Shown: one piece after another, positions 1-18,204 of the stretch
Layout: each line of letters opens with the position of its first letter
How positions within the stretch are numbered: the first letter of the stretch is position 1
NCBI GenBank assembly: GCA_945291235.1
Contig: CALYQY010000047.1
Coordinates: forward strand, 1-18,204
DNA from: an uncultured Gilliamella sp.
GTDB lineage: Bacteria > Pseudomonadota > Gammaproteobacteria > Enterobacterales > Enterobacteriaceae
Reading direction: 5' to 3'
DNA: 18,204 bases
Translations under genes and position numbers: made by a program
The notes under the pieces: model-generated
What the model was told of the DNA's origin: nothing
What the model saw: the letters and a program-made list of their open reading frames with translations, nothing else
Database searches by the model: none

Positions 1-1301
1 TAATAACCACCAATATCAAGCACTAAGCCCATTTTGTTACCTTTCCAATCAAGATCACCTGACATACCAATATCTACCATTTTATCAACTAATGCTTTGT
101 TAGCTGTAAATCCATCTTCGGTACAAATTTCAGCACGAAGTGCAAGACCTAGGCCATCAACTTCGCCTATTTCTTTATGTTTCTTCTCAAGTGTTTTTAA
201 TCCGTCAAGGAAATATGCACCGCTATCCATTACCATTTTTTCGTAATCTGTTTCAGAAGTCATTTTTAATACTTCTAGGCCAACTGCGGTACCTAAAGGA
301 TTTGAAGCAAACGTAGAGTGGGTTGAGCCAACTGGGAATACTTCTGGATTGATTAACTCTTCACGAGCCCATAAACCACCTAATGGATTTAAACCATTAG
401 TTAATGCTTTCGCAAATACCACCACATCAGGTTTAACATCAAAATGTTCAATTGACCATAATTTACCAGTACGATAAAAGCCCATTTGAATTTCATCAAC
501 AACTAATAAAATACCATATTGATCTAAAACTTTTTTCAGACCTTTAAAGTAATTACGAGGAGGAACAATATAACCACCCGTTGCTTGTAATGGTTCGGCA
601 TAAAATGCAGCATATTCTGCTTGTCCGACTTTTGGATCCCATACACCGTGATATTCAGTTTCAAATAAACGTGCAAACTCAGCAACTAAGTGTTCACCAT
701 ATTCTTCTGCTGTCATTCCTTTTGGACGACGGAACGGATATGGGAATGGTACAAACATTGCACGATCACCAAAATGACCATAACGACGACGGTAACGGTA
801 GCTCGAAGTAATTGAAGATGCACCCAAAGTACGACCATGGTAACCACCTTGAAATGCAAACATCAGGGATTTACCACCAGTAGCATTACGAACGACTTTT
901 AATGAATCTTCAATACATTGTGAACCACCAACATTAAAATGAACTCGTCCTTGGTAACCGAATCGCTGTTCCATACCTTGAGCAATTGTTTTTGCTAATT
1001 CGATTTTAGTTGGATGTAAATACTGGCTAGCACATTGCGGTAAAGTATCGATTTGCTTTTTAAGTACGTTATTTAAACGCTCATTAGCATAACCAAAGTT
1101 ACAAGCAGAGTACCACATTTGTAAATCAAGGAAGGCTTTACCTTCTTTATCATACATGTAACTACCTTCACAACCATCAAAAATCTTTGGTGGTTCAACA
1201 TAATGCACGGTATCACCAAATGAACAGTATTTTGCTTCATCCGCTAATAACGTTGCATCGTCGGGACGACTATTAATCATTTCTAAAGTTGGTTTACTCA
1301 T
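1..1301 (-). CDS. Class III PLP-dependent aminotransferase (C-terminus off the left edge)
   Basis: A fold-type I, class III pyridoxal-phosphate aminotransferase, which moves an amino group between an omega-amine or amino acid and a 2-oxo acid in the cytoplasm. 433 residues are visible from ATG at 1301-1299, and the reading frame is open to base 1, so the C-terminus is missing. Seen: an N-terminal region ending in YLHPTKIELA, a cofactor-binding stretch NVGGSQCIEDSLK, GGYHGRTLG, the aspartate motif VVDEIQMGFYRTGK, and FAKALTNG whose lysine (K298) should form the Schiff base. THSTFASNPLGTAVGLE follows, as in the family. The ribosome site (GAGA) is weak. It is divergent from the outer-membrane gene at 1458. 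The family includes GABA, ornithine, putrescine and diaminobutyrate aminotransferases, and the substrate cannot be told from sequence. The class is near certain, the substrate open. Confidence 0.93.
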   Translation of the reverse strand, partial: MSKPTLEMINSRPDDATLLADEAKYCSFGDTVHYVEPPKIFDGCEGSYMYDKEGKAFLDLQMWYSACNFGYANERLNNVLKKQIDTLPQCASQYLHPTKIELAKTIAQGMEQRFGYQGRVHFNVGGSQCIEDSLKVVRNATGGKSLMFAFQGGYHGRTLGASSITSSYRYRRRYGHFGDRAMFVPFPYPFRRPKGMTAEEYGEHLVAEFARLFETEYHGVWDPKVGQAEYAAFYAEPLQATGGYIVPPRNYFKGLKKVLDQYGILLVVDEIQMGFYRTGKLWSIEHFDVKPDVVVFAKALTNGLNPLGGLWAREELINPEVFPVGSTHSTFASNPLGTAVGLEVLKMTSETDYEKMVMDSGAYFLDGLKTLEKKHKEIGEVDGLGLALRAEICTEDGFTANKALVDKMVDIGMSGDLDWKGNKMGLVLDIGGY

Positions 1302-1365
1302 AATTTATCTCACTAATCCATATTCAAACACGATAAAATGTGGCATTATTATTCAAGAAAATTGA

Positions 1366-1393
1366 TTGTTACAATGTACATTTAATGTATAGA
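1366..1393 (+). promoter_or_regulatory. Possible sigma-70 promoter for the MipA/OmpV-family gene
   Basis: TTGTTA (1366-1371), a 16-base spacer and TATAGA (1388-1393) resemble a sigma-70 promoter about 65 bases before the start codon at 1458. The match is moderate and AT-rich DNA yields such pairs by chance. Confidence 0.3.
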
Positions 1394-1457
1394 TTGTGTG
1401 ACGACAAATCACAGCTAACAAAACCATAATAATATTTGATGATAAATAGGTCAGTTT

Positions 1458-2222
1458 ATGAGGATCAATAAATTTACTAACAAACGCTGTGTGATTGCGA
1501 TATTATCCATCATTACCCTAGGCTACACTCAATTTACCTTTGCTGATCCCACCTCAATTGGTGTCGGTGTTGGTTGGTCAAATTCACCTTATAAAAGTTA
1601 TAGTGCCAGTTTTTATCCGGTGCCACATATAGATTACGATAATGGTCTATTTTTTATTGATGATTTATCTGCCGGTTTTTATCTTTATAATGAGAATAAC
1701 CAAAGTATTTCCCTAGGTGCCCGCTATTTATCAAATGAATTTAAACCACATGATTCAGATAATCATCGACTCAAACAACTTGATACTCGACATACAACAG
1801 TACTGGCTGAAATTGAATACTCGATCGTAACCGATTGGGGAGGCTTTTCGACCAGTATTGGGGCTGATGTACTTAATGAAAGTAATAGCATTTTGTTTAA
1901 TGCTGATTATACCGTACCTTATATACAAGGCGATTTAATTATCGCGCCTACCATTGGTGTCAGTTGGGCTAATAGTAAACATAATAATTATTACTATGGT
2001 GTGTCGAATAAAGAATCGCTCCGATCAGGTTTACATCATTTTAGTGCGAACAGCTCTTTTACACCTTATCTGGAAGTAGTAGCACAATATACATTAACCG
2101 ATAATATTGCCACTTTTGGCGGCGTCCATATTGAAAAATTAACCGGTGATGCAGCAGATAGCCCAATGGTTGACAATAGTATCTTAACTTCAGTTTATAT
2201 GGGGTTATCTTATAAATTTTAA
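1458..2222 (+). CDS. MipA/OmpV-family outer-membrane beta-barrel protein
   Basis: An outer-membrane protein of the MipA/OmpV family (254 aa, the usual size). The founding members are MipA, a scaffold linking murein synthases and hydrolases in E. coli, and OmpV of Vibrio. Seen: a signal peptide of about 29 residues with a hydrophobic core and cleavage likely after FTFA; YPVPHIDYDNGLFFI near residue 52, a family hallmark; alternating-residue strands; YYYGVSNKES near residue 177; DAADSPMVD before the last strand; and a C-terminal GLSYKF ending in phenylalanine, the barrel-assembly signal. The ATG at 1458 has a weak TAGG ribosome site seven bases upstream. It is followed 125 bases later by rdgC and has no obvious partner gene. 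Whether it binds murein enzymes or serves another envelope role is not shown by the sequence. Confidence 0.88.
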   Translation: MRINKFTNKRCVIAILSIITLGYTQFTFADPTSIGVGVGWSNSPYKSYSASFYPVPHIDYDNGLFFIDDLSAGFYLYNENNQSISLGARYLSNEFKPHDSDNHRLKQLDTRHTTVLAEIEYSIVTDWGGFSTSIGADVLNESNSILFNADYTVPYIQGDLIIAPTIGVSWANSKHNNYYYGVSNKESLRSGLHHFSANSSFTPYLEVVAQYTLTDNIATFGGVHIEKLTGDAADSPMVDNSILTSVYMGLSYKF

Positions 2223-2305
2223 TCATTTTATTTTAGTTTTATTTAACTTTAACAATAAAATGATAACGACTTAATTTTTGATAAACCTTTATTTGAAACG
2301 CTTCA

Positions 2306-2314
2306 TGTTAAAAT
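2306..2314 (+). promoter_or_regulatory. Possible extended -10 promoter for rdgC
   Basis: TGTTAAAAT is an extended -10 element (TGN followed by TAAAAT), 33 bases before the rdgC start. No good -35 hexamer lies at the right distance, which extended -10 promoters tolerate. Confidence 0.35.
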
Positions 2315-2347
2315 GAATTTCACCCAAAATTTAGGAAATAGTTAAAT

Positions 2348-3256
2348 ATGCTTTGGTTTAAAAATGCCATTATTTACCAGCTTAATAGTGATAGTTTGCT
2401 TGATAAAGCTGTCATTGAAAAGGCGCTTAAATCCGCACCTTTCACGCCATGTGGCAACTTAGATACCTCTAAAACTGGTTGGGTGTCTCCTTATAATGAT
2501 AATAATAATGAAGATTATATTGTTGATATGCAGGGGCATTTACTACTACGGATTAAAAAAGAGTCTAAGATTCTTCCCGCTCCGGTAATCAAACAAGCAT
2601 TATTAGAAAAAATAGATAAACAAGAACAAGCGTTAAGTCGAAAATTAACCAAAAACGAAAAAGCAACACTAAAAGATGAAGTGATGATTGACTTAATGCC
2701 CAGAGCATTTAGCAAATATAATCATTATTGGCTTTGGATTGATACGCATAATAAACGAATTATTATCGACTGTAGTAGTTTCAAGCAAGCAGAAGATATT
2801 CTAGCCATTTTGCGTAAACAATTAGGGGCGTTGGCACTAACACCACTATCTATTGATACTCCTCTTGAGCAAGTAATGACAACTTGGGTTAAAGAAAAAC
2901 TCAACTTCGCTCCATTTTTATTAGGCGATCAAGCCGAATTAAAAGATCCGCTGGAAGGAAACGGCATTATCAGTTGTAAAAATCAAGATATTACCAGTGA
3001 TGAAATGCTTGTTCACTTTGAATCGGGAAAATGGATATCTAAAATCAAAATCATTGATGAACGAGGCGTTAATTTTATCGTTAATAGTGATTTAACTTTG
3101 AAGCGAATCAAATTTGACTCAGCTATTTTAGATGAAAATGAAGATATCGGATCTGATGAAATGGATAAACGACTCGAAGCTGATTTTTTCATTATGGCTA
3201 ATACGTTAGCAAATACAATTAACGATTTTTATATTACAATTAATCAAATAATTTAA
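2348..3256 (+). CDS. rdgC: Recombination-associated protein RdgC
   Basis: RdgC is a nucleoid-associated, ring-forming dimer that binds duplex DNA without sequence preference and restrains RecA filament activity. It becomes important when replication restart is impaired. The protein is 302 aa, essentially the E. coli length (303). Diagnostic stretches are the N-terminal MLWFKNAIIYQL, FTPCG, the GW dipeptide near residue 45, KESKILPAPVIKQAL, LKDEVMIDLMPRAFSKY, DCSSFKQAEDILAILRK and, near the C-terminus, RLEADFFIMANTLA. No truncation is seen. An AGGA ribosome site lies 11 bases before ATG, rather far. It is a monocistronic-looking gene between two outer-membrane protein genes, and its placement just ahead of the dnaA-gyrB block puts several DNA-metabolism genes together. 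Confidence 0.96.
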   Translation: MLWFKNAIIYQLNSDSLLDKAVIEKALKSAPFTPCGNLDTSKTGWVSPYNDNNNEDYIVDMQGHLLLRIKKESKILPAPVIKQALLEKIDKQEQALSRKLTKNEKATLKDEVMIDLMPRAFSKYNHYWLWIDTHNKRIIIDCSSFKQAEDILAILRKQLGALALTPLSIDTPLEQVMTTWVKEKLNFAPFLLGDQAELKDPLEGNGIISCKNQDITSDEMLVHFESGKWISKIKIIDERGVNFIVNSDLTLKRIKFDSAILDENEDIGSDEMDKRLEADFFIMANTLANTINDFYITINQII

Positions 3257-3317
3257 CGATAAGATAATATCTTTTTAACACATTAGTATCTTTTGTTATG
3301 GATTTGTATATTATATG

Positions 3318-3326
3318 TGCTATAAT
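3318..3326 (+). promoter_or_regulatory. Extended -10 promoter of ompA
   Basis: TGCTATAAT is a perfect extended -10 element, placed so that transcription would start near 3333. This leaves an AT-rich leader of about 75 bases before the ATG at 3408, in keeping with the long, stabilising 5' leaders of ompA messages. A TTGTTA further upstream (3293-3298) is 22 bases away, too far for a standard -35. Confidence 0.6.
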
Positions 3327-3407
3327 CGATATTAGATTATGTGTATCATAATTAAATAAAAACAAATTAAACAACGTCTATTACAACATAATAAGTTGAG
3401 GCAAAAA

Positions 3408-4508
3408 ATGAAAAAAACAACTCTAGCTCTAGCAATTGCTGTTGCAAGTTTAACTGCTACTGCAGCTAATGCAGCATATGAAGATAACACTTTTTATACA
3501 GGTGCTAAATTAGGTTGGTCAGAACTTTACAGATTAGATGCGAACAAAGTTCGTGCATTTGATGATACTGGTATCAAAACTTCTAACCGCAGCAATGTTG
3601 CTGGTGGTGCATTCCTTGGTTTCCAAGCTAACCCATACTTAGCATTTGAATTAGGTTACGACTGGTTAGGTTCTGCTAAATATAAAAGATCTTACAACCG
3701 TACAGGTAATGGCCATGCTGCTGGTAACAGCAAAATCAATGCACAAGGCGTATCTTTAACTGGTAAATTAAGCTACCCATTATCATTCATCTCTGATGAT
3801 TTTGATATCTACGGTCGTGCAGGTGCAATGGTAACTATCGCTAAATGGAAAAATGGCGGCGATGTTAAAGATGTTTATGGTCGTGGCGGTACAAAAACTG
3901 ACGTATCTCCAGTTTATGCATTAGGTCTTGACTATCGCCTTGATGAAAACTTCTCTACTCGTTTAGAGTACCAATATGTTCAACATATTCATACTAAAAC
4001 TGACGCATCGCCAGACGCTGGTACTGTTAGCTTAGGTATTACTTACCGTTTAGCTTCTCCTGCTGTTGCGGCACCAGTTGAAATCAAAACTGAAGTAAAT
4101 CGTTATGTATTAAATGAAGACGTTCTATTTGCTTACGCTAAAGCTGACTTAAAAGCAGAAGGTCGTCAAGCATTAGATAATCTATTAGCTACTTTAGTGA
4201 AAATTAATCCATCTCAAAGTGCTATCGTTGTAATTGGTCACACTGACCGTATCGGTTCAGAACATTACAACCAAAAATTATCTGAACAACGCGCTCACTC
4301 TGTAATGAAATATTTAGTTGCTAGAGGCGTTCCTGCAGAAATCATCAGTGCACGTGGTATGGGTAAATCTCAACCAGTTACTGGTACTAAATGTAATGCA
4401 CTTCGTGGCGCTGAATTAAAAGCATGTTTAGCACCAGATCGTCGTGTTGAAATCGAAGTTAAAGCACGTAACGTTCAAGAAGTTCAAGTAACTAATACAA
4501 CAAATTAA
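3408..4508 (+). CDS. ompA: Outer-membrane porin/structural protein OmpA
   Basis: OmpA tethers the outer membrane to peptidoglycan. The start is ATG at 3408, preceded by TGAGG (3397-3401). An in-frame TTG at 3396 lies before this ribosome site and is rejected. The product is 366 aa. The signal peptide is residues 1-22, ending ATAANA, and the mature protein begins AYEDNTFYTGAKLGW, close to E. coli OmpA. An eight-stranded barrel spans roughly 23-205, then an Ala/Pro/Val hinge (SPAVAAPVEIK), then an OmpA-like peptidoglycan-binding domain at about 230-355. In that domain D280 of GHTDRIGS and R295 of SEQRA keep the 15-residue spacing of the diaminopimelate-binding pair D271/R286 in E. coli. Two cysteines (KCNALRGAELKAC) match the conserved disulfide. 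Codon choice is strongly biased (GGT, GCA/GCT, CGT), as in an abundant protein. It has its own promoter and terminator. Confidence 0.97.
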   Translation: MKKTTLALAIAVASLTATAANAAYEDNTFYTGAKLGWSELYRLDANKVRAFDDTGIKTSNRSNVAGGAFLGFQANPYLAFELGYDWLGSAKYKRSYNRTGNGHAAGNSKINAQGVSLTGKLSYPLSFISDDFDIYGRAGAMVTIAKWKNGGDVKDVYGRGGTKTDVSPVYALGLDYRLDENFSTRLEYQYVQHIHTKTDASPDAGTVSLGITYRLASPAVAAPVEIKTEVNRYVLNEDVLFAYAKADLKAEGRQALDNLLATLVKINPSQSAIVVIGHTDRIGSEHYNQKLSEQRAHSVMKYLVARGVPAEIISARGMGKSQPVTGTKCNALRGAELKACLAPDRRVEIEVKARNVQEVQVTNTTN

Positions 4509-10720: not shown

Positions 10721-10747
10721 AAGTATTTCAATACAGCATTTAACAAC

Positions 10748-10777
10748 AAAAAACCAGACTTAATGTCTGGTTTTTTT
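10748..10777 (+). terminator. Rho-independent terminator of gyrB, probably bidirectional
   Basis: AAAAAACCAGAC (10748-10759) pairs perfectly with GTCTGGTTTTTT (10765-10776) around the loop TTAAT, followed by further T. It begins 27 bases after the gyrB stop. The A run on the left arm becomes a U run on the other strand, so it should also stop transcripts arriving from the minus-strand operon. Confidence 0.93.
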
Positions 10778-10813
10778 ATTGTTAAAATCTCAGATAATTT
10801 TATTGCCCAAAAT

Positions 10814-11141: not shown

Positions 11142-11627
11142 TTATATATTTAATGCTTTTTGTAATTGTTGAAGTTTTTTATGTAATTTTTCCAACTCAA
11201 TTTGCTTTTCAAGTTCTGAGCCATATGAACTATTCACTTTTTTAATGAGTTGCTGTTCAATATCGTTAACTTGAGCTTGCAAATCATCACGACCTTTTGC
11301 CTTTTGTTTCACTTCATCAGTTAACTGAGATACCTCAGTTTCCAGTTTTTGCTGTAGTGACCGTCTTTGTTTTATCGTTAATGAAGTATCATTTTTCTGT
11401 TTCTCAATAATGGCATAAATCTGTCTAAACTGACGATTAGCTCTTTTTTCATTCTCTAGAATTTGCACTTTTCGATCAACTCGAGCTTGATAATTACCCG
11501 AATTATGACAACCCATTTTATGGAAAAAACTAATGTCTTCATTAGTTGGATCACATTGTTCAACTGTAGTTGAACAACCAGTTAAAAATATAAACGGACA
11601 AAGTAATAACAGATATCTTTTTTTCAT
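11142..11627 (-). CDS. Small coiled-coil lipoprotein, last gene of the Tag-like operon
   Basis: A 161-aa predicted lipoprotein of unrecognised family. The signal peptide ends in the lipobox LTGC with the acylated cysteine at position 18. Residue 19 is serine, not aspartate, so transport to the outer membrane is expected. Residues about 19-45 contain two further cysteines (EQCDP, KMGCHN). From about residue 48 to the end the sequence is highly charged, rich in K, E and Q with spaced L/I, and should form long coiled coils (for example LQKLETEVSQLTDEVKQKAK). The start follows the stop of the upstream lipoprotein gene by two bases, and AAGGTAAG lies in the end of that gene. The same overall plan as its neighbour suggests the two lipoproteins may pair. 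No equivalent is part of the P. aeruginosa TagQRST set as I know it. Confidence 0.85.
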   Translation of the reverse strand: MKKRYLLLLCPFIFLTGCSTTVEQCDPTNEDISFFHKMGCHNSGNYQARVDRKVQILENEKRANRQFRQIYAIIEKQKNDTSLTIKQRRSLQQKLETEVSQLTDEVKQKAKGRDDLQAQVNDIEQQLIKKVNSSYGSELEKQIELEKLHKKLQQLQKALNI

Positions 11628-11629
11628 AA

Positions 11630-12319
11630 TTAACTTACCTTAACTGCTGAGCGCTGTTTAGACACAATATTTATTTGATTTTCAAGTACTGCAATTTGTT
11701 TATTTAATTGATTGATTTGTTTATCAAGTTGAGAGACATTGACACCAGCTTGTTTTTCTTCAGAAGATACTGTCACCCAATCTCTTTCGATTTTTTTCAT
11801 ACGTTGTAACTTATCGTTTAGATAAGTAATATTGGCATCAATTTGGGTCAAATCATTTTCAGCCTGTTTTTTATTTACCGTATCGTTTTTAATTTGATTT
11901 CTTAATGCGTTAAGTGTCATCAAATTCTTGTCTAACACTGCTTTAGCTACTTGTGTCACAGCTTGCACCTCGTAAGTATCTTTCTGAATATCTTGAATAT
12001 AGATATCAAGACGCGCTTCAGTATTAGCATAGTCTGCGCGTTTAGAGTCAAGATAATAATTTACGCCCATCGCTAAACCACAACTTACAGCCGCAGAAGC
12101 GACACAAGTACCAGCTCTACCACCTAGTAACAAACAACCAACACCACCTATACCTGCACCGACTGCACAAGCTTGCCATGCAGATTTACTAAAAAATTTA
12201 GCTGTATGGCTTTTAGTCAATGCGGGATCAACATTTCGAGTATTTACACCACCAACACCTTGACATCCAGCTAAAACAAGAGATACACATAAACTAAGGA
12301 CTACTAAAATTTTATTCAT
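11630..12319 (-). CDS. Glycine-rich coiled-coil lipoprotein (TagQ-position)
   Basis: A 229-aa predicted lipoprotein. The lipobox LAGC gives an acylated C19 followed by Q, pointing to the outer membrane. Residues about 45-92 form an uncharged Gly/Ala/Cys-rich segment (ACAVGAGIGGVGCLLLGG, then GTCVASAAVSCGLAMGVNYYLD), like glycine-zipper segments that insert in or pack against membranes. Residues about 93-229 are a long coiled coil with LDKQINQLNKQIAVLENQI near the end. The ATG overlaps the stop of the SUMF1 gene by four bases (ATGA) with AAAGGA upstream, so they are translationally coupled. It holds the place of tagQ, the outer-membrane lipoprotein of the type VI phosphorylation pathway. The assignment rests on position and lipoprotein nature, not on recognised sequence identity. 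Confidence 0.87.
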   Translation of the reverse strand: MNKILVVLSLCVSLVLAGCQGVGGVNTRNVDPALTKSHTAKFFSKSAWQACAVGAGIGGVGCLLLGGRAGTCVASAAVSCGLAMGVNYYLDSKRADYANTEARLDIYIQDIQKDTYEVQAVTQVAKAVLDKNLMTLNALRNQIKNDTVNKKQAENDLTQIDANITYLNDKLQRMKKIERDWVTVSSEEKQAGVNVSQLDKQINQLNKQIAVLENQINIVSKQRSAVKVS

Positions 12320-13935
12320 CGTTTGTTTCCTTTTATTTCATTACAAGTTTGTAGCCAAGCTGTTCGCTCAACTTTTCCTGATTCAATATATTCGTTGATG
12401 TGTTTGAAATAGAGCGCCAAGTAGTCGCTCATATTTGCTTTTCCACTATTCTCAAGAATAAATTGAGTCGATTTGGATTGATCGTTGATTGTTTTTTTCT
12501 CGTAGTTCGAGGCTGTGTTAACAATGGTGTCGGAATAGTATTTCAAGATAAAATCCCGAGCACTTTTGGACTCATCAACAACCTGTTTTAAATTTTCCAA
12601 CTTCACTTTTGAACACATATTATCGTCATTCAAAGTATTAGTCTCGTTTGCATCACAAACTTCATTGACCATTGTTTCATAGAGATTATTATTATATTCG
12701 TACTTACTATGTAAATCAGATACATTGGCACATAAAAAGGCTCCGAGTTGCAAAGCAGATTGAATAGAGCGATCACGTTGCTCATCACGGGCTTGATTAG
12801 CACTCCTTAAAAGTATATTGAGTTGATTTAATTCTTGTTTAGTTTTCTCATCCTCAACTTGTTTAGTGATTTTTTCAAGCTCATTAACTACATTGCCATT
12901 TTGGTTATTATTTGTTTCGTTACCTAGTTCGTTCCATTCTTTTTCAAGCTCTTTGATTTTTTCATTCGAACTCATCACATTTGTGGTATAGACTAAACGG
13001 ATCCCAACATCCTTACTTTTATAGGCAGTTTTATCATCATAAAAAGGTTTCTCAATACGAAAATAACTGGTAATTGATGATTCCGGTGTCAAATAGCTAC
13101 CACCACGAACAATGATGCCACCTTGCTGACCATGATAACGATCCAATTTATTCATTTTAAATGAATCAAACATCATTTCGTGTACATTACCTAAGATATC
13201 ATAAAGATCCAAAGGGTTAGGCTCAAGCCGACCTATAAGCTGTAATTTTCCATTGGCTGACTTAGATCCGGAAAACCAGGCATAACTTTCAACATTACTT
13301 GTCATCGGGAATCGTGATTCACGAAATTCTGATTCCGTCACTTTCGCTCCTCCTCGTGCTGCATATTCCCACTCGGTGTTACTAGGTAAACGGACATAGC
13401 CGTTAGGTAAACCCTTTTCATTCAACTTAGCAGCGTTTTCAATCAACCAGCGATTATATTTATCGGTAAAAGCGACTGCATCAAACCAGCTAATATCTGT
13501 AATAGGAAAAGAAAGATTGATCTTGGGTTTTGGGCAGGTATCATTCATTACCGATTGATATTGTAATGCGGTAATCTCATACTTACCTATTAAATAATAA
13601 CGCTCTTTACCAGAATCTGAAAAACTGCCCGCAATATAGTTTGGTGTTGCATACTCAGCAAAACCAAGCTCTTTTTGATTACTGCCCAAAATAATTTTGA
13701 CATCATCTAACGGCTTGTTTGTTGGTGTAAATACCTTTTTCATTACCAAACTACCGTCACAAGGCATTGGTAAAATAACATCATCTTTTGCTGGTTTAGG
13801 ATTATAGAATTTTTCATCCCAAGCTTGAGCATAACCGAAGGACGGAAATAAGCTTATTGCAGCCAAACCCCAACTAGCAAATCTGAGACTGTTAGGCTTC
13901 ACGTAAGCTTTCTGCTGGTTGAATTTTAACAGCAC
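12316..13935 (-). CDS. Secreted SUMF1/FGE-fold protein with helical tail (TagR-like)
   Basis: A 539-aa periplasmic protein. The signal peptide ends FGYA before QAWDEK. Residues about 110-316 form a SUMF1 (formylglycine-generating-enzyme-like) domain: YYLIGKYEIT, PITDISWFDAVAF, VRLPSNTEWEYAARGG (181-196), LYDILGNVHEMMFDSF, VRGGSY (276-281) and GIRLVY (311-316). The stretch 282-310, where true FGE enzymes carry their two catalytic cysteines, has none, so it is likely a binding domain. Residues about 322-539 are a charged helical tail with several cysteines. The GTG at 13935 has a perfect AGGAGG five bases upstream. An in-frame GTG at 13902 would give a shorter, more typical signal peptide but a poor ribosome site. 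In the type VI pathway, TagR of this fold promotes activation of the kinase PpkA; the neighbours support the same role. Confidence 0.9.
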   Translation of the reverse strand: MLLKFNQQKAYVKPNSLRFASWGLAAISLFPSFGYAQAWDEKFYNPKPAKDDVILPMPCDGSLVMKKVFTPTNKPLDDVKIILGSNQKELGFAEYATPNYIAGSFSDSGKERYYLIGKYEITALQYQSVMNDTCPKPKINLSFPITDISWFDAVAFTDKYNRWLIENAAKLNEKGLPNGYVRLPSNTEWEYAARGGAKVTESEFRESRFPMTSNVESYAWFSGSKSANGKLQLIGRLEPNPLDLYDILGNVHEMMFDSFKMNKLDRYHGQQGGIIVRGGSYLTPESSITSYFRIEKPFYDDKTAYKSKDVGIRLVYTTNVMSSNEKIKELEKEWNELGNETNNNQNGNVVNELEKITKQVEDEKTKQELNQLNILLRSANQARDEQRDRSIQSALQLGAFLCANVSDLHSKYEYNNNLYETMVNEVCDANETNTLNDDNMCSKVKLENLKQVVDESKSARDFILKYYSDTIVNTASNYEKKTINDQSKSTQFILENSGKANMSDYLALYFKHINEYIESGKVERTAWLQTCNEIKGNKR

Positions 13936-15115
13936 GACGCCCTCCTATAACCACAACGGTACTTGAAATGAGTAAAGTCAATAAAAATGCAAAAATAAAA
14001 TGGTAAAATTGTAATTGACTCACAACAGATTGTGAAACCAAATTTTCACCTAAAACTAAATTGAACGCATAATTTCCTGCCATAAAAAGTATGCAGGACA
14101 GAATAAAAGCTAAACAACTAAGCATCATAGCTTGATTGAGTAGATAAAGCATAATATCTCGGGAGCGAAAACCAAGTAATCGCATAAAAGCAATATCTTT
14201 ACGCTTCCGTTCAATATTGGATAAAAACGATCCGGTAAATGATAAAACACATCCAAATACGGCTGTCATTGCAATCACACTAAAAATAAAATTAAGTACG
14301 CGATCAATTGCTTGCATATTTTCAATTGCTTTAGCTTGAGTGCGAGTATCAATATTCTTTTCTCGTAATTTAAATGCTAATGGTGCAACATTCTCAAGTG
14401 CTTTAGCATATATTCGGGCACGAGCAAAGGAAGTATGAGAGGGAGGGTTAATATTTCCTTTAGATGTTATAAAAACATTACTGACATAACCATCATAATA
14501 GTTTTCCATTTCTATTAGTAAATCTAATGTAACAAATGCGGCTGCTCGGCTGTAATTAATTTCGGGAATAATACCAATAACTTCTAATTCTGCAATGCCT
14601 TTCTCCAGCTTCCCGTCTAGCTGTCGGGTAATTACCATTTTCACACGATTCCCAACGTCTACCTGCATTTTTTCGGCAGATAATGAACTCAATAAAATTT
14701 GATTTTTGTTATTGAGTAACGGTAAATTTTCGGTTATTGGATCGCCCTTCGCAGTGGGAATAACTTCGGCATTATTAACAAAATGACTGGCATCTTTCAT
14801 TAAGTCTGCTTGTGTATTTAATGAACGTGTCAATGGAATCACAAAAGCGGTCTCTGGTTGTTGCTCTATCCATTGAAACATTTCATTATCGAGTTGTAAA
14901 TTACCCACAATTTTTACTTCTAAATTTTGCGGATCATTAAGTAATTGTTGTCTAAGTTGTGAAACAATGCCATATTTTAAACTAAATAGTAATAGTAACG
15001 GTGTGATGACCGATATTACCGACGCAATAATACAAAATGAAACTTTTTTGTCGTACCATAAGTCTGCCAAGGATAAACGAGCGATAAAAAGCCATTTTGA
15101 AAACGTTTTAATCAT
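13892..15115 (-). CDS. FtsX/LolC-type ABC transporter permease (TagS-like)
   Basis: A 407-aa inner-membrane protein with the MacB/LolC topology. One membrane helix lies at about 25-46, a large periplasmic region at about 47-270, then three helices at about 273-297, 325-350 and 370-390. Between helices 2 and 3 is the cytoplasmic FtsX signature region FLSNIERKRKDIAFMRLLGF, which couples to the ATPase. The C-terminus IQPAESLREA is typical (PAE.LR). It starts two bases after the ATPase stop and ends 44 bases inside the SUMF1 gene. Such transporters move no small substrate across the membrane; they transmit ATP-driven motion to the periplasm. Alternatives are a lipoprotein-releasing LolCE-like or MacB-like role. 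The neighbourhood favours TagS. Confidence 0.93.
   Translation of the reverse strand: MIKTFSKWLFIARLSLADLWYDKKVSFCIIASVISVITPLLLLFSLKYGIVSQLRQQLLNDPQNLEVKIVGNLQLDNEMFQWIEQQPETAFVIPLTRSLNTQADLMKDASHFVNNAEVIPTAKGDPITENLPLLNNKNQILLSSLSAEKMQVDVGNRVKMVITRQLDGKLEKGIAELEVIGIIPEINYSRAAAFVTLDLLIEMENYYDGYVSNVFITSKGNINPPSHTSFARARIYAKALENVAPLAFKLREKNIDTRTQAKAIENMQAIDRVLNFIFSVIAMTAVFGCVLSFTGSFLSNIERKRKDIAFMRLLGFRSRDIMLYLLNQAMMLSCLAFILSCILFMAGNYAFNLVLGENLVSQSVVSQLQFYHFIFAFLLTLLISSTVVVIGGRRAVKIQPAESLREA
13941..13946 (-). promoter_or_regulatory. Perfect Shine-Dalgarno for the SUMF1 gene inside the permease gene
   Basis: AGGAGG on the minus strand, five bases before the GTG at 13935, also encodes the Gly-Gly of VVIGGRRAV in the permease C-terminus. 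It supports the longer start of the SUMF1 protein and a 44-base gene overlap. Confidence 0.6.
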
Positions 15116-15117
15116 TT

Positions 15118-15834
15118 TTACGCCCTATCCTGTAATGGCAGAAAAACGGATGATTGCGGGGAAGTTAACTTAGCTGATAAAGTATAAAGCCCTTTATTTG
15201 CTATTCGTTTCCAATCATGCGTAACAATCATTGCTGCAATATTATCTTGCAAAGCCTGTTCAATAATTAATTCAAAAAGCAAATTAGCATTATAAGGATC
15301 TAACGCTGACGTTGGTTCATCTGCCAGTAATAACGCAGGTTTATGAATAATAGAACGAATAAAAGAAGCACGTTGTCTTTCACCAATAGAGAGCTGATTA
15401 GGATACTTATTGATTAAATGTGCAATATTAAGCTTCTGCACTAAGTAATCAAAGCGTTGGTTATCAACGCTTTTTTGTAATAACTTAAAGGACATTAATA
15501 TATTGTCACGAACGGTCAAAAATGGCAGCAATCCACCTGTTTGCAACATAAAACCTAAATAGTGAGCTCGTATATCGGCTAATTGCTCCCATTTATCATG
15601 CTTAATTAATTTAGCAATATCAATATCATTATCCCCTACCAGCAGGTTGTAGCAACCCACTTCGGCAGGTTTTAGAATCATACCCACCATTTCAAGTAAG
15701 GTGCTTTTTCCAGCACCACTATCACCTTGAATAACCACAACTTGACCCGCGTTAACTCTCAGTTGTGGCAGGCAAACACTAAAAAAGGATTTGCCGGTTG
15801 TTCTTGAAATGGACAATTGATTAATGACTAACAT
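15118..15834 (-). CDS. ABC transporter ATP-binding protein (TagT-like)
   Basis: A 238-aa ATPase of the LolD/MacB subfamily that powers the adjacent permease. Seen: Walker A GDSGAGKST (37-45, K43), Q-loop Q98 in GFMLQTGGLLPFLTV, signature LSIGERQR (148-155), Walker B ALLLADEPTSALD (D172, E173) and H-loop H206 in IVTHD. All catalytic positions are intact, so it should hydrolyse ATP. The ATG lies two bases after the stop of the VWA gene and has no good ribosome site, implying coupled translation. It is followed at two bases by the permease. The ATPase alone resembles LolD, but the partners (VWA, SUMF1, lipoproteins) and the presence of a single permease gene point to a TagT-like role in envelope signalling. 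Confidence 0.95.
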   Translation of the reverse strand: MLVINQLSISRTTGKSFFSVCLPQLRVNAGQVVVIQGDSGAGKSTLLEMVGMILKPAEVGCYNLLVGDNDIDIAKLIKHDKWEQLADIRAHYLGFMLQTGGLLPFLTVRDNILMSFKLLQKSVDNQRFDYLVQKLNIAHLINKYPNQLSIGERQRASFIRSIIHKPALLLADEPTSALDPYNANLLFELIIEQALQDNIAAMIVTHDWKRIANKGLYTLSAKLTSPQSSVFLPLQDRA

Positions 15835-15836
15835 TT

Positions 15837-17792
15837 TTACGGTAACATTTCTAATGGAATAGGATAAACATTTTCACGCGGATCACTTCCTTCGGATAAT
15901 GAGATCCAGCGATCGACATCGGCATTACATTTTTGATAATAACGAATCTTACTGTTTAAATTCCGGATAAATTTTTCTTGTTCAAGCCCACTCATACTTT
16001 TCCAAGCATCTTGATCAAGTCCTGTTACGTCACTTTTATAAGGAATATTATCCAAATATTCACCTAATAAACCTAAATCAGCAATTTTAGTCACAGAATC
16101 AGATTTTAACTTACTTGGATCTTGCCCCATAGCCGCTGCAACAGAACGAAGTTGGGAAAACATATCATCGGCAGAAATCAAACCATCATTGGCGGCATTA
16201 GCAATCTTGCTAACAACATCACTTAAATCACTTAGTTGCGATTTGGTTAACAAAATGCGTGGCTCTGCTGTCGGAATGGTTGGTTTAACAAAGTCTTTAT
16301 CAGCAATCCAAGCCTTGAAAACTGTTGGGGCTTTAGCGCCTTTAGTATCCCCAAGATATGCAAGCTGCATGGCTTTACTTAATAATAAAGCATCTTTGAT
16401 CATATCAGCATTTTCATCTTTTGAATTCAATGCGCTTCCAACGGAAACCTCACCTTTATAAGCAAGTTTCACTTGTGTGGATAATGCTTCGGCTAATAAA
16501 TCAACCTTCTGACCAAATTGTTGTACATTACCAGCATTAACCGGATAATAGAGTGATTTATGGATGAAATCGTTAAAAGTTAAATCAGAGTATTGCGCTT
16601 TAGCAATAGGATGATCTTTTATACCATTTGCTGTTTTGAGATGTAAAGCATAGATAGCAACACCTTTATGTTGCGCTTCAAGTCGCAATTGAGCGGCATC
16701 CATTTTCGTACTTGATAGTTTATCGTCGCCTGGAATAGCGCTAGCATCAGTAATTAAAATTATATAACGGGCGCTAAAGTTATCCCAATTAATCTCATTT
16801 AAAGCTTGATTTATACCTGCAAATGCATCTTCGGCAAAATAAGCCGTTGAAACTTTAGCTTGTTTAAGTGAGGCGCTTGCTTTTAGAAAGCTATCTTTAC
16901 TCTTAACTTGATTAGGATCGACAAAAATTTTAGAAACAAATTCAAGTTTTTTGGAAGTTTTTAAACTCGATCTAAAAGAAACCAGACCGAATTTAACTTG
17001 ATCTTGTAAATGTTCTTTTTCAATTTTCTTATAAACTCGCTTAACCGCTTCTCTAGTGCGAGAAATATAGGGATCCATTGAAATCGTTGAATCTATCACA
17101 AATACAATTGCCGCATTAAAAGGGGTTTGATTGCTAGCTTTATCATTAGATTGAGAATTTGATGATCCTTTTTTAACTAGCTCATCTTGTTTGCTCAGTG
17201 AAGCAACTTCTAATACTCGTTCATAAAACCCTTGCCCATTCATCACTTCCTCACCTTGTAAAATCGGTAATAAATAGAAGTTACTTTTGAAATCGACATA
17301 CTCTTTAGGCTCTTGTGCAAGCACTTGTGATACTGATTTATTACTTTTGAGTGCATCACGAATAGGTTTTAATAGCGTTTCGGGATTTTCAGCATCGACA
17401 ATTTTAGTTAGATCTGCTTTATCTTTAAAAAATAATAAAGGTTCACGATCAACCGGATTAGTAAATACTAAAGTCATTTGCATATTCCAATCGATAGCAC
17501 ATGAATCATTAATCCAACCGATTGTTTTACCGAATGAATCCGGACCTACTTTTAGCCATTTCTGATTATTTTCATATTTACGCTCATAAACATAGTAACG
17601 CGAAAAAGCCGGAACAGATTTACCTTTAGAATCGGTGAAATTACTCTTTAATTGGCAGCTTGGCGTACTTAACACACGCTGATACAAGGTTGTTTTACCA
17701 GCCTGTTTAAGTGGCTCTGCTGCAAATCCCAATAGAGGAAAACACGTTAAACCTATTGTAAAAAAGAGTTTGGAAATATCTATTTTATTCAT
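15837..17792 (-). CDS. Secreted SH3-like plus von Willebrand factor A protein (PpkA periplasmic-domain-like)
   Basis: A 651-aa exported protein. The signal peptide is about 1-25 (hydrophobic core, LLGFAAEP). Residues about 30-110 look like an SH3-like domain (RYYVYERKYENNQKWLKVG, GKTIGWINDSCAIDW). Residues about 226-430 are a VWA domain whose metal site is D234-S-T-I-S238, T316 in STAYFAEDAF, and D349 in IILITDASA. The first motif has Thr in place of the usual Ser of DxSxS, which can still coordinate. The rest (about 430-651) is helical without recognised domains. No membrane anchor and no kinase motifs are seen. AAGGAG sits five bases before ATG. In P. aeruginosa a periplasmic VWA forms the C-terminal part of the kinase PpkA and precedes tagT as this gene does; here it is free-standing. 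Confidence 0.93.
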   Translation of the reverse strand: MNKIDISKLFFTIGLTCFPLLGFAAEPLKQAGKTTLYQRVLSTPSCQLKSNFTDSKGKSVPAFSRYYVYERKYENNQKWLKVGPDSFGKTIGWINDSCAIDWNMQMTLVFTNPVDREPLLFFKDKADLTKIVDAENPETLLKPIRDALKSNKSVSQVLAQEPKEYVDFKSNFYLLPILQGEEVMNGQGFYERVLEVASLSKQDELVKKGSSNSQSNDKASNQTPFNAAIVFVIDSTISMDPYISRTREAVKRVYKKIEKEHLQDQVKFGLVSFRSSLKTSKKLEFVSKIFVDPNQVKSKDSFLKASASLKQAKVSTAYFAEDAFAGINQALNEINWDNFSARYIILITDASAIPGDDKLSSTKMDAAQLRLEAQHKGVAIYALHLKTANGIKDHPIAKAQYSDLTFNDFIHKSLYYPVNAGNVQQFGQKVDLLAEALSTQVKLAYKGEVSVGSALNSKDENADMIKDALLLSKAMQLAYLGDTKGAKAPTVFKAWIADKDFVKPTIPTAEPRILLTKSQLSDLSDVVSKIANAANDGLISADDMFSQLRSVAAAMGQDPSKLKSDSVTKIADLGLLGEYLDNIPYKSDVTGLDQDAWKSMSGLEQEKFIRNLNSKIRYYQKCNADVDRWISLSEGSDPRENVYPIPLEMLP

Positions 17793-17804
17793 TTTTGCTC
17801 CTTA

Positions 17805-18204
17805 CTATTTCTGCAATTGAGATAAACGATCTTTAACAAACTCGCTATTTGGATCATTAATTAAAGATGTTTCATACCAATAAATGGCTGCTTCTTTATC
17901 GGCTTTGAAGCATTTATTCGCTTTATAAAATTTTTCGTCATACTCTTTTGCATACAGCAGAGCAATTTTAGTATTTTTTTGCGCCTTATTTGCATATAAA
18001 CGCTGCGCGATATTACATTTTCCTGCATTTTTAGCTTCAGTAATTATCTCAATAATTGCATCTATATCGGGTTTAGTCTGTAAACATTGTTGAATAAACG
18101 TTAAATCATCACTTGTTGCATTTTTTAAACTACATTTACTGCTGATTTTGGAATCCGGTTCTACCGGTTTTGTCGGTGCCGTTGGCGTTGACGCTACTGG
18201 TTTC
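17805..18204 (-). CDS. C-terminal part of a Cys-containing TPR/Sel1-like protein (N-terminus off the right edge)
   Basis: The frame is open from base 18204 to TAG at 17807-17805, giving 133 residues. It begins with a Pro/Thr-rich linker (KPVASTPTAPTKPVEPDSK), then a helical region with cysteines (SSKCSLKNA, FIQQCLQ, AGKCNIAQ, KANKCFK) and ends in ADKEAAIYWYETSLINDP, like the last helix pair of a TPR or Sel1 repeat. Paired cysteines suggest a periplasmic location. A disordered Pro/Thr linker of this sort commonly follows a membrane helix in receptor-type Ser/Thr kinases or anchors a lipoprotein. The missing N-terminus could therefore be a kinase, a lipoprotein signal or something else; the window cannot tell. 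It ends 12 bases before the VWA gene and heads the visible operon. Confidence 0.8.
   Translation of the reverse strand, partial: KPVASTPTAPTKPVEPDSKISSKCSLKNATSDDLTFIQQCLQTKPDIDAIIEIITEAKNAGKCNIAQRLYANKAQKNTKIALLYAKEYDEKFYKANKCFKADKEAAIYWYETSLINDPNSEFVKDRLSQLQK

What the first reader, a model, noticed from the sequence alone, without database searches (positions are those of the whole stretch)
11142..18204. Tag-like envelope-signalling operon with a changed composition, no secretion genes in view
In transcription order the operon reads: repeat protein, VWA protein, ABC ATPase, FtsX permease, SUMF1-fold protein, lipoprotein, lipoprotein. The spacings are 12, 2, 2, -44, -4 and 2 bases, so it is one transcription unit. 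The order VWA-TagT-TagS-TagR-TagQ equals that of the P. aeruginosa H1 type VI threonine-phosphorylation arm (established knowledge). The kinase is not fused to the VWA, an additional coiled-coil lipoprotein is present, and no type VI structural gene is within 7 kb. It is either a divergent post-translational switch for a type VI system beyond the edge or an independent system that senses the envelope through an ATP-driven mechanical relay.
Basis: partly seen in the sequence, partly recalled or inferred. Interest (0 to 1): 0.75.

Follow-up and report, generated by a model that had tools for sequence, protein, structure and literature searches.

The report
Envelope sensor operon missing its partners
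A Gilliamella bacterium appears to keep, still under selection, a set of cell-envelope sensing genes that in most relatives belongs to the larger srfABC operon, after its lineage lost the two big cytoplasmic srf proteins; this offers a natural way to ask what the envelope part does on its own.

Summary
In detail: seven tightly packed genes at 11142-18204. TagT-, TagS- and TagR-like proteins match a T6SS-linked Tag locus far better than LolCDE or MacB. The VWA protein matches PpkA's periplasmic half, without the kinase. A T6SS switch is unlikely: the twin genome G001 (98.75% identical over the window) has no Pkinase match, its T6SS lies over 460 kb away, and across 44 family members operon and T6SS are not associated.

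It is the envelope half of the srfABC operon, an association already in print (PMC3608642). What is new: G001 has lost srfB and most of srfA and srfC, which all 80 named loci compared keep. A 274-aa SrfA/SrfC fusion remains, drifting almost neutrally. TagT, TagS, TagR and the tail of the first protein stay as constrained as in sisters; its cytosolic domain is strongly relaxed. VWA, TagQ and LP1 are mildly relaxed, so slow decay is not excluded.

Seventeen wider loci carry the VWA-TagT-TagS core with no srf or T6SS gene found in the stretch held. SrfC's model is dynamin-like.

Limit: the deletion lies outside the window and is shown in G001.

The parts
17805..18204 (-). C-terminal end of the first gene (REP): periplasmic TPR-like helical domain plus the last repeats of the linker; cut by the window edge. 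The whole protein is 1000 aa in G001: N-terminal cytosolic domain, one TM (195-224), about 660-aa Pro/Lys/Glu-rich repeat linker, helical C-terminal domain
15837..17792 (-). Periplasmic VWA protein (651 aa, signal peptide by eye, intact MIDAS); equivalent to the periplasmic half of PpkA without the kinase
15118..15834 (-). TagT-like ABC ATPase; Walker A, signature (LSIGE), Walker B and H-loop present
13892..15115 (-). TagS-like FtsX-family permease; 4 hydrophobic segments with a large periplasmic domain between the first and second
12316..13935 (-). TagR-like SUMF1-fold periplasmic protein; no Cys in the stretch where formylglycine-generating enzyme has its catalytic pair (that position recalled), so probably a binding protein and not an enzyme
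11630..12319 (-). TagQ-like lipoprotein, lipobox LAGC, +2 Gln
   Evidence: (TagQ model 24 bits, cut-off 300)
11142..11627 (-). Second coiled-coil lipoprotein (LP1), lipobox LTGC, +2 Ser; found in 78 of 80 srf-type loci

Best explanation
The operon is the envelope half (REP-VWA-TagT-TagS-TagR-TagQ-LP1) of the widespread srfABC operon, in a Gilliamella lineage that lost srfB and most of srfA and srfC but still keeps the envelope half under purifying selection. Likely working (inferred): the lipoproteins, TagR and VWA register displacement or damage of the envelope; the TagT/TagS transporter, of the MacB/LolC/FtsX superfamily, couples ATP hydrolysis to movement of its periplasmic domain and does not export anything; REP spans the inner membrane with a periplasmic TPR-like tail. 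In intact relatives REP's cytosolic domain passes the signal to SrfB (Hsp70/actin-like by motif) and SrfC (dynamin-like by fold), which would remodel the membrane. Shown: gene content, homology, loss in G001, constraint pattern, SrfC fold match. Inferred: what is sensed, the direction of signalling, the remaining function, and that the window's own genome has the same deletion.
For: Homology to a T6SS-linked Tag locus: L030 has TssM, PP2C, kinase-VWA and a TagQ over NCBIfam's cut-off. srf operon: 80 of 80 named loci carry SrfA, SrfB, SrfC, REP and VWA in order (the best 80 of 516 confirmed). Loss: SrfB 0 matches in G001 and SrfC only model positions 736-878; the G001 ORF is a SrfA-N/SrfC-C fusion, shared by three protein clusters (98, 62, 63% in the alignment; 98, 61, 54% by BLASTP). 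Constraint, (p1+p2)/2p3, this lineage versus sisters | sisters among themselves: ABC .27|.29, FtsX .29|.31, SUMF1 .28|.29, REP tail .42|.38, gyrB .10|.10, but REP cytosolic domain .60|.34 and SrfC remnant .82|.33. Window versus G001: 7 nonsynonymous and 26 synonymous differences in the operon. A core without srf genes exists elsewhere. SrfC model resembles dynamins.
Against: The deletion is outside the window; only G001 and three small-contig proteins show it. VWA, TagQ and LP1 are mildly relaxed (.26|.18.42|.31.45|.29). Fixed-topology branch ratios, G001 over sisters, exceed gyrB's .93 (only 3 sisters for gyrB) for every operon gene: FtsX 1.2, ABC 1.6, SUMF1 1.6, REP tail 1.9, TagQ 2.0, VWA 3.4, LP1 4.0, REP cytosolic domain 5.1; SrfC remnant 12.7 (some nodes of that tree have support as low as 33). 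Window-G001 N/S is higher in the operon than in five other window genes (7/26 versus 2/33, p=.08). G222 and G290 have no SrfB, SrfC or VWA match, and G144 keeps only fragments, so loss of the rest may follow. Direction of signalling and SrfB's class rest on motifs and analogy.
Confidence: 0.57

Rival explanations
1. A remnant in slow decay: after srfB and srfC were deleted the envelope half has no function and is being lost, as in sister genomes that lack the whole operon.
For: G222 and G290 lack SrfB, SrfC and VWA matches, and G144 keeps only SrfA/SrfB fragments between gyrB and gsp. VWA, TagQ, LP1 and REP's cytosolic domain are relaxed. The MQR genes that follow LP1 in relatives are not found in the 55 kb of G001 searched or in the window (one weak match falls in REP's repeats).
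Against: TagT, TagS, TagR and the REP tail keep sister-level constraint. Recent differences are mostly synonymous (7 N, 26 S; binomial p 1e-11 against an assumed neutral share). The deletion is old: the fusion ORF differs by 38% between lineages and is near-neutral by codon position, yet the seven genes are intact.
Confidence: 0.25
2. The fusion ORF (SrfA N-terminus plus SrfC C-terminus) is a working small replacement for SrfABC, so the system still has a cytoplasmic output.
For: One open frame of 274 codons in G001; three database proteins carry the same fusion (a protein database shows open frames by construction). A drift simulation gives a 0.0005 to 0.011 chance of no stop.
Against: Codon-position differences of its SrfC part look neutral (.38/.27/.35; ratio .82). 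One homologue lacks about 31 internal residues. The part of SrfC with the GTPase motif is missing.
Confidence: 0.1
3. A divergent post-translational switch for the T6SS elsewhere in the genome.
For: Homology to TagTSR and to PpkA's periplasmic half; G001 does carry a T6SS.
Against: No Pkinase match in G001; T6SS over 460 kb away, with no kinase or FHA gene recognised among the ORFs read there (8 of them given to Pfam). In the family 10 of 31 operon-bearing genomes lack VipB and 11 of 13 operon-less genomes have it (a few genomes are incomplete).
Confidence: 0.05
4. An ordinary lipoprotein or efflux transporter of the LolCDE/MacB kind.
For: General fold and family: FtsX domain, LolD as the nearest curated ATPase model; the T6SS-linked TagT also has LolD as nearest model.
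Against: LolD 124 bits against a cut-off of 308 and LolCE 26 against 362. With phmmer the ATPase scores 143 bits to TagT; the best PDB chains score 115 (OpuCA), 103 (BceA), 95 (LolD), 78 (MacB), 77 (FtsE); the permease scores 171 to TagS, 20 to LolF.
Confidence: 0.03

Closest known systems
srfABC operon with tagQRST and ppkA neighbours (Campbell et al. 2013, PMC3608642; noted for Xenorhabdus in Sun et al. 2019, PMC6950479; passages of both seen)
   Same: REP-VWA-TagT-TagS-TagR-TagQ-LP1 in the same order and orientation
   Different: In G001 srfB and most of srfA and srfC are gone, no MQR gene follows, and the REP linker is about 660 residues against about a dozen in the sister L041
TagQRST-PpkA threonine phosphorylation arm of the Pseudomonas aeruginosa H1-T6SS
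   Same: Homologous ATPase, permease, SUMF1-fold protein and periplasmic VWA half (compared with the T6SS-linked locus L030 of another genome, not with P. aeruginosa itself)
   Different: No kinase, no T6SS linkage; TagQ only weakly alike; extra LP1 and REP
Stand-alone core found here: small membrane protein with a TPR-like tail, VWA, TagT, TagS (17 loci, L168-L184; small protein readable in 14)
   Same: Same core proteins at 35-39% VWA identity; its TPR-like tail weakly matches the REP tail (E 6e-5; three control profiles E 0.5-0.7)
   Different: No match to the REP profile, no TagQ, SUMF1 in 1 of 17 loci, no srf genes
LolCDE / MacB / FtsEX transporters
   Same: Same superfamily and permease topology
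   Different: Far below the curated cut-offs; lower scores than to TagT/TagS

Membership tests
T6SS threonine phosphorylation arm (PpkA-TagTSRQ) | Ser/Thr kinase PpkA | tested here: not met
   VWA protein has no kinase domain; PF00069 gives 0 matches in G001, with the control search ringing in 11 of 14 genomes
T6SS threonine phosphorylation arm (PpkA-TagTSRQ) | Encoded with tss genes | tested here: not met
   VipB at 740371 in G001, operon at about 267-277 kb
T6SS threonine phosphorylation arm (PpkA-TagTSRQ) | TagT, TagS, TagR homologues in one operon | tested here: met
   37, 31, 27% identity to L030; phmmer 143, 171, 158 bits
T6SS threonine phosphorylation arm (PpkA-TagTSRQ) | TagQ | tested here: inconclusive
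   NF041250 24 bits, cut-off 300; phmmer to L030 TagQ E=3; profile of srf-type TagQ finds L030 TagQ at 2e-9
T6SS threonine phosphorylation arm (PpkA-TagTSRQ) | PppA phosphatase and Fha | not tested
   No genome-wide search was made for PP2C or FHA
srfABC-tag operon | Conserved order REP-VWA-TagT-TagS-TagR-TagQ-LP1 | tested here: met
srfABC-tag operon | SrfB and SrfC present | tested here: not met
   Tested in the twin G001, not in the window's own genome: SrfB none, SrfC only model positions 736-878 of 878
LolCDE / MacB | Curated model cut-offs | tested here: not met
   LolD 124/308, LolCE 26/362, MacB ATPase 95/966 bits
Dynamin superfamily (SrfC of relatives) | Dynamin-like fold and GTPase motifs | tested here: met
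Hsp70/actin-like ATPases (SrfB of relatives) | Phosphate-binding motifs and fold | tested here: inconclusive
   DVGNSRTCG and DIGGGTTDLV invariant in 12 sequences, motif meaning recalled; PDB profile search gave no relative; not folded

The most novel reading that the evidence does not exclude
VWA-TagT-TagS with a membrane-anchored TPR-like protein is a self-sufficient envelope-monitoring or envelope-stabilising machine, not a T6SS accessory. Different lineages have attached different outputs to it: a kinase that fires the T6SS, the SrfB/SrfC pair with a dynamin-like membrane remodeller, or an S41-protease/ankyrin set. In this Gilliamella lineage the Srf output was cut off and the part that lost most constraint is REP's cytosolic domain, which identifies it as the coupling site. 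SrfABC would then be an envelope-damage-triggered membrane repair system and not primarily an injected toxin.
Probability: 0.35. Interest if true: 0.82.

Novelty: new variant of a known kind. Interest (0 to 1): 0.58.

Why it matters
What SrfABC does is called unclear in PMC3608642, and the papers on TagQRST that I saw treat it as part of a T6SS. A lineage that kept the sensor and lost both large cytoplasmic proteins separates the two functions by nature, points to the coupling domain, and gives a clean genetic background to ask what the TagTS/VWA machine does by itself. The dynamin-like fold of SrfC gives a testable mechanism, membrane remodelling after envelope damage, for a family named as a virulence factor.

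Tried and rejected
T6SS control: rejected on linkage, missing kinase and lack of association. LolCDE/MacB: rejected on scores. Antiphage system: 5 of the 7 proteins were given to PADLOC; only the ATPase (mad3 65 bits, mad8 32 bits, both ATPase-like, and weaker) and the coiled-coil TagQ matched. REP's cytosolic domain: AF2 gives a confident beta sandwich, but Foldseek found only weak immunoglobulin-like and TEAD matches (TM-score normalised by query at most 0.20 in the 50 rows shown), so no function is read from it. PDB sequence search with the VWA protein, SrfB and SrfC found no real relative. Promoter scan near the fusion ORF: 7 found, 8.0 expected; one terminator-like site inside the ORF, 0.4 expected. 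Tandem repeats in 17700-18204 of the window: none.

Rates. Simple relative-rate counts against an Orbus outgroup gave about normal ratios for most operon genes (0.89-1.24; LP1 2.19; SrfC remnant 11.4), but gyrB and recF had no outgroup there, so no housekeeping control. The model-based tree gave some acceleration. Both are reported. One search is taken as the better measure because it needs no outgroup; its pairs are not independent, and sister pairs with third-position difference up to 0.25 were dropped (for example 52 of 55 kept for VWA, 47 of 55 for SrfC). In one search the pairs with L081 look misaligned and are not used. In one search, 3 of 17 upstream ORFs (L171, L172, L178) were picked in a wrong frame or short and left out. 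The control profiles printed no score; they were run again (E 0.54-0.65). Of 25 class-level genomes with a VWA hit besides G001, 20 regions were read; G618, G490, G451, G588 and G680 were not. MQR counts: 79 of 80 by any hit, 77 of 80 by best hit on the same strand.

Papers. PMC3608642, PMC6950479, PMC11881912, PMC6657622, PMC2816674: passages only. PMC3467343 is not held. No paper held Gilliamella with srfB. By the ranking, none held SrfB, SrfC and dynamin together (20 of 39 rows seen) and none held srfC with both dynamin terms (10 of 127 rows seen); a paper with only two of the terms could be among rows not seen. Other papers: listings only.


Full report
What is there. The proteins are a cut repeat protein (here REP), a periplasmic VWA protein, an ABC ATPase, an FtsX permease, a SUMF1-fold protein and two lipoproteins. 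The window is the dnaA-dnaN-recF-gyrB region of a Gilliamella. The nearest held genome, G001, is a single 2.81-Mb contig (99% complete), 98.75% identical over the whole window. The genus follows from named hits and from shared contigs; its family f1 also holds Orbus (G170), so I call it Orbaceae.

Relation to Tag proteins. Locus L030 (G040) is a T6SS-linked locus: TssM, a PP2C phosphatase, a kinase-VWA fusion, then TagT, TagS, TagR and TagQ, its TagQ passing NCBIfam's cut-off (341 against 300). The window's VWA matches its PpkA residues 456-1071 at 37%, the ATPase 37%, the permease 31%, the SUMF1 protein 27%. With phmmer the ATPase scores 143 bits to TagT, against 115 to the best PDB chain (OpuCA), 103 to BceA, 95 to LolD, 78 to MacB and 77 to FtsE; the permease scores 171 to TagS against 20 to LolF. 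TagQ is only distantly alike. P. aeruginosa's own proteins were not compared.

Relation to T6SS. G001 has a T6SS at 740 kb, more than 460 kb from the operon at about 267-277 kb, with TssB, TssC, TssM, TssA, TssJ and others. G001 has no Pkinase match (the control search rings in 11 of 14 genomes). Of 44 genomes of the family, 31 have the VWA and 32 have VipB: 21 have both, 10 VWA only, 11 VipB only, 2 neither (Fisher p=0.46; a few genomes are under 90% complete). There is no sign that they go together.

The operon it belongs to. In relatives the unit is longer: SrfA, SrfB, SrfC, REP, VWA, TagT, TagS, TagR, TagQ, LP1 and one or more membrane VWA proteins (MQR). All 80 carry SrfA, SrfB, SrfC, REP and VWA in that order; 79 ATPase, permease and SUMF1; 78 LP1; 77 MQR; 73 TagQ (best hits). 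They include Gilliamella, Pasteurellaceae, Pseudomonas, Pantoea, Azotobacter, Proteus and Taylorella. As they are the closest relatives of the query, they say nothing on distant types. Campbell et al. 2013 (PMC3608642, passages) described srfABC with tagQ and ppkA, and in most cases tagR, tagS and tagT, in host-associated Deltaproteobacteria, and Sun et al. 2019 (PMC6950479, passages) mention T6SS post-translational control genes beside srfABC in Xenorhabdus. The association is therefore known.

What is missing here. G001 has no SrfB match and only model positions 736-878 of SrfC. Upstream of REP is one 274-codon frame whose start matches the first 70-100 residues of SrfA and whose end matches the last 155 or so of SrfC. 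The same fusion is found in three protein clusters: P0121 (98%), P0122 (62%), P0123 (63% over aligned columns, with about 31 residues missing). So the deletion probably predates at least one lineage split. P0121 is listed with its sources blank, as is the window's own VWA (P0001), so it may come from the window's genome; this is not shown. MQR genes were not found in the 55 kb of G001 searched or in the window. Of 31 family genomes with the VWA, 29 have SrfB; the exceptions are G001 and G314, where SrfC starts at a contig edge. Among 29 VWA-bearing genomes of the order sample (the other 14 members of the family left out), 26 have SrfB; those without are G001, G005 and the T6SS type G040. G005 has neither SrfB nor SrfC, and its REP-to-SUMF1 block stands beside an rpoH-like gene, by eye, with no convincing srf remnant in the stretch held: probably a second, independent case, in a 96% complete draft.

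Is the remnant under selection? Codon-position ratio (p1+p2)/(2 p3), medians, this lineage against 11 sisters (7 for gyrB) | sisters among themselves: gyrB .10|.10; ATPase .27|.29; permease .29|.31; SUMF1 .28|.29; REP tail .42|.38; VWA .26|.18; TagQ .42|.31; LP1 .45|.29; REP cytosolic domain .60|.34 (ranges .54-.68 and .21-.44); SrfC remnant .82|.33. REP and SrfC values use G001 DNA, the others the window. Window against G001: 7 nonsynonymous and 26 synonymous differences in the operon, 2 and 33 in five other genes. Branch lengths on a fixed topology, G001 over sisters: gyrB .93 (3 sisters), permease 1.2, ATPase 1.6, SUMF1 1.6, REP tail 1.9, TagQ 2.0, VWA 3.4, LP1 4.0, REP cytosolic domain 5.1, SrfC remnant 12.7. 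Identity of REP's cytosolic domain to the closer sisters is .51-.59 where sisters share .77 on average; for the REP tail .65-.78 against .74. The conclusion is mixed but clear in outline: the transporter, SUMF1 protein and REP tail are kept; VWA and the lipoproteins are somewhat relaxed; the cytosolic domain of REP is strongly relaxed; the SrfC remnant is nearly free. That is what one expects if REP's cytosolic domain served SrfB/SrfC and the rest has its own job. The fusion ORF staying open in G001 is odd under near-neutral drift (simulated chance .0005-.011).

A core without srf or T6SS. In a class-wide sample of 369 genomes, 26 have a VWA hit. Besides G001, 20 of 25 regions were read: two have srfABC beside the VWA (L165, L167); one (L166) ends at a contig edge with SrfB on another contig; 17 show VWA-TagT-TagS with no srf gene, kinase or T6SS hit in the stretch held (kinase and T6SS were sought with single sequences, and some stretches are short, down to 6.2 kb). 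Upstream of the VWA is a small protein, usually with one hydrophobic segment (by eye) and a TPR-like tail, readable in 14 of 17. Its tail matches the REP tail weakly (hhalign E 6e-5, probability 65%), while three control profiles give E 0.5-0.7. SrfB is present in 3 of the 25 genomes; of the 22 without, 5 have VipB and 17 do not. A further type (L031, L033, L035) adds an S41 protease and ankyrin proteins; its genomes G089 and G051, and G223, have SrfB at other places.

How it probably works. P. aeruginosa TagQRST-PpkA responds to mechanical or chemical damage of the outer membrane (PMC11881912, passages), and for TssK assembly TagQ and TagR are needed more than TagS and TagT (PMC6657622, passages). 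By homology the envelope half here should register envelope damage, with TagT/TagS as an ATP-driven mechanical element. In intact srf operons the signal would pass through REP to SrfB and a dynamin-like SrfC, that is, to membrane remodelling. In this lineage that branch is lost and the envelope part remains. Its remaining action is inferred to be periplasmic.

Verdict. The T6SS reading is not supported and the independent-system reading is partly supported. The operon is a new variant of a known kind: a srfABC-tag operon that has lost its srf output and still looks maintained.

Noticed in passing
L003:13060-14997 (G001, just beyond the window's right edge): Huge in-frame repeat expansion in REP: 19.9 copies of a 72-bp unit and 9.1 of a 51-bp unit, giving a periplasmic linker of about 660 residues. 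The window ends inside this gene.
   Followed up: partly
L003:11410-12234: The SrfA/SrfC fusion ORF stays open although its codon-position pattern looks neutral; homologous proteins of at least one more lineage carry the same fusion.
   Followed up: partly
L168-L184: Stand-alone core (small TPR-like membrane protein, VWA, TagT, TagS) in Gammaproteobacteria without srf or T6SS genes in the stretch held; in L180 it lies between lptE-like and holA-like genes by eye.
   Followed up: partly
L031, L033, L035: A third association of the VWA-TagT-TagS-TagR-TagQ set with an S41/PDZ protease and ankyrin-repeat proteins; the genomes also have SrfB elsewhere.
   Followed up: partly
L027 (G005): REP-VWA-TagT-TagS-TagR beside an rpoH-like gene, with no SrfB or SrfC match in the genome: probably a second independent loss or a gain without srf.
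   Followed up: partly
window 10721-10800: Strong hairpin with a T run after gyrB (z -6.9), a likely terminator between gyrB and the convergent operon.
   Followed up: yes
window 3-4508: Aminotransferase class III (cut), MipA, RdgC and OmpA genes flank dnaA; ordinary.
   Followed up: yes
public names of the VWA homologues: About a dozen of the 120 listed are named serine/threonine protein kinase or PpkA although proteins of this length have no room for the kinase part.
   Followed up: no
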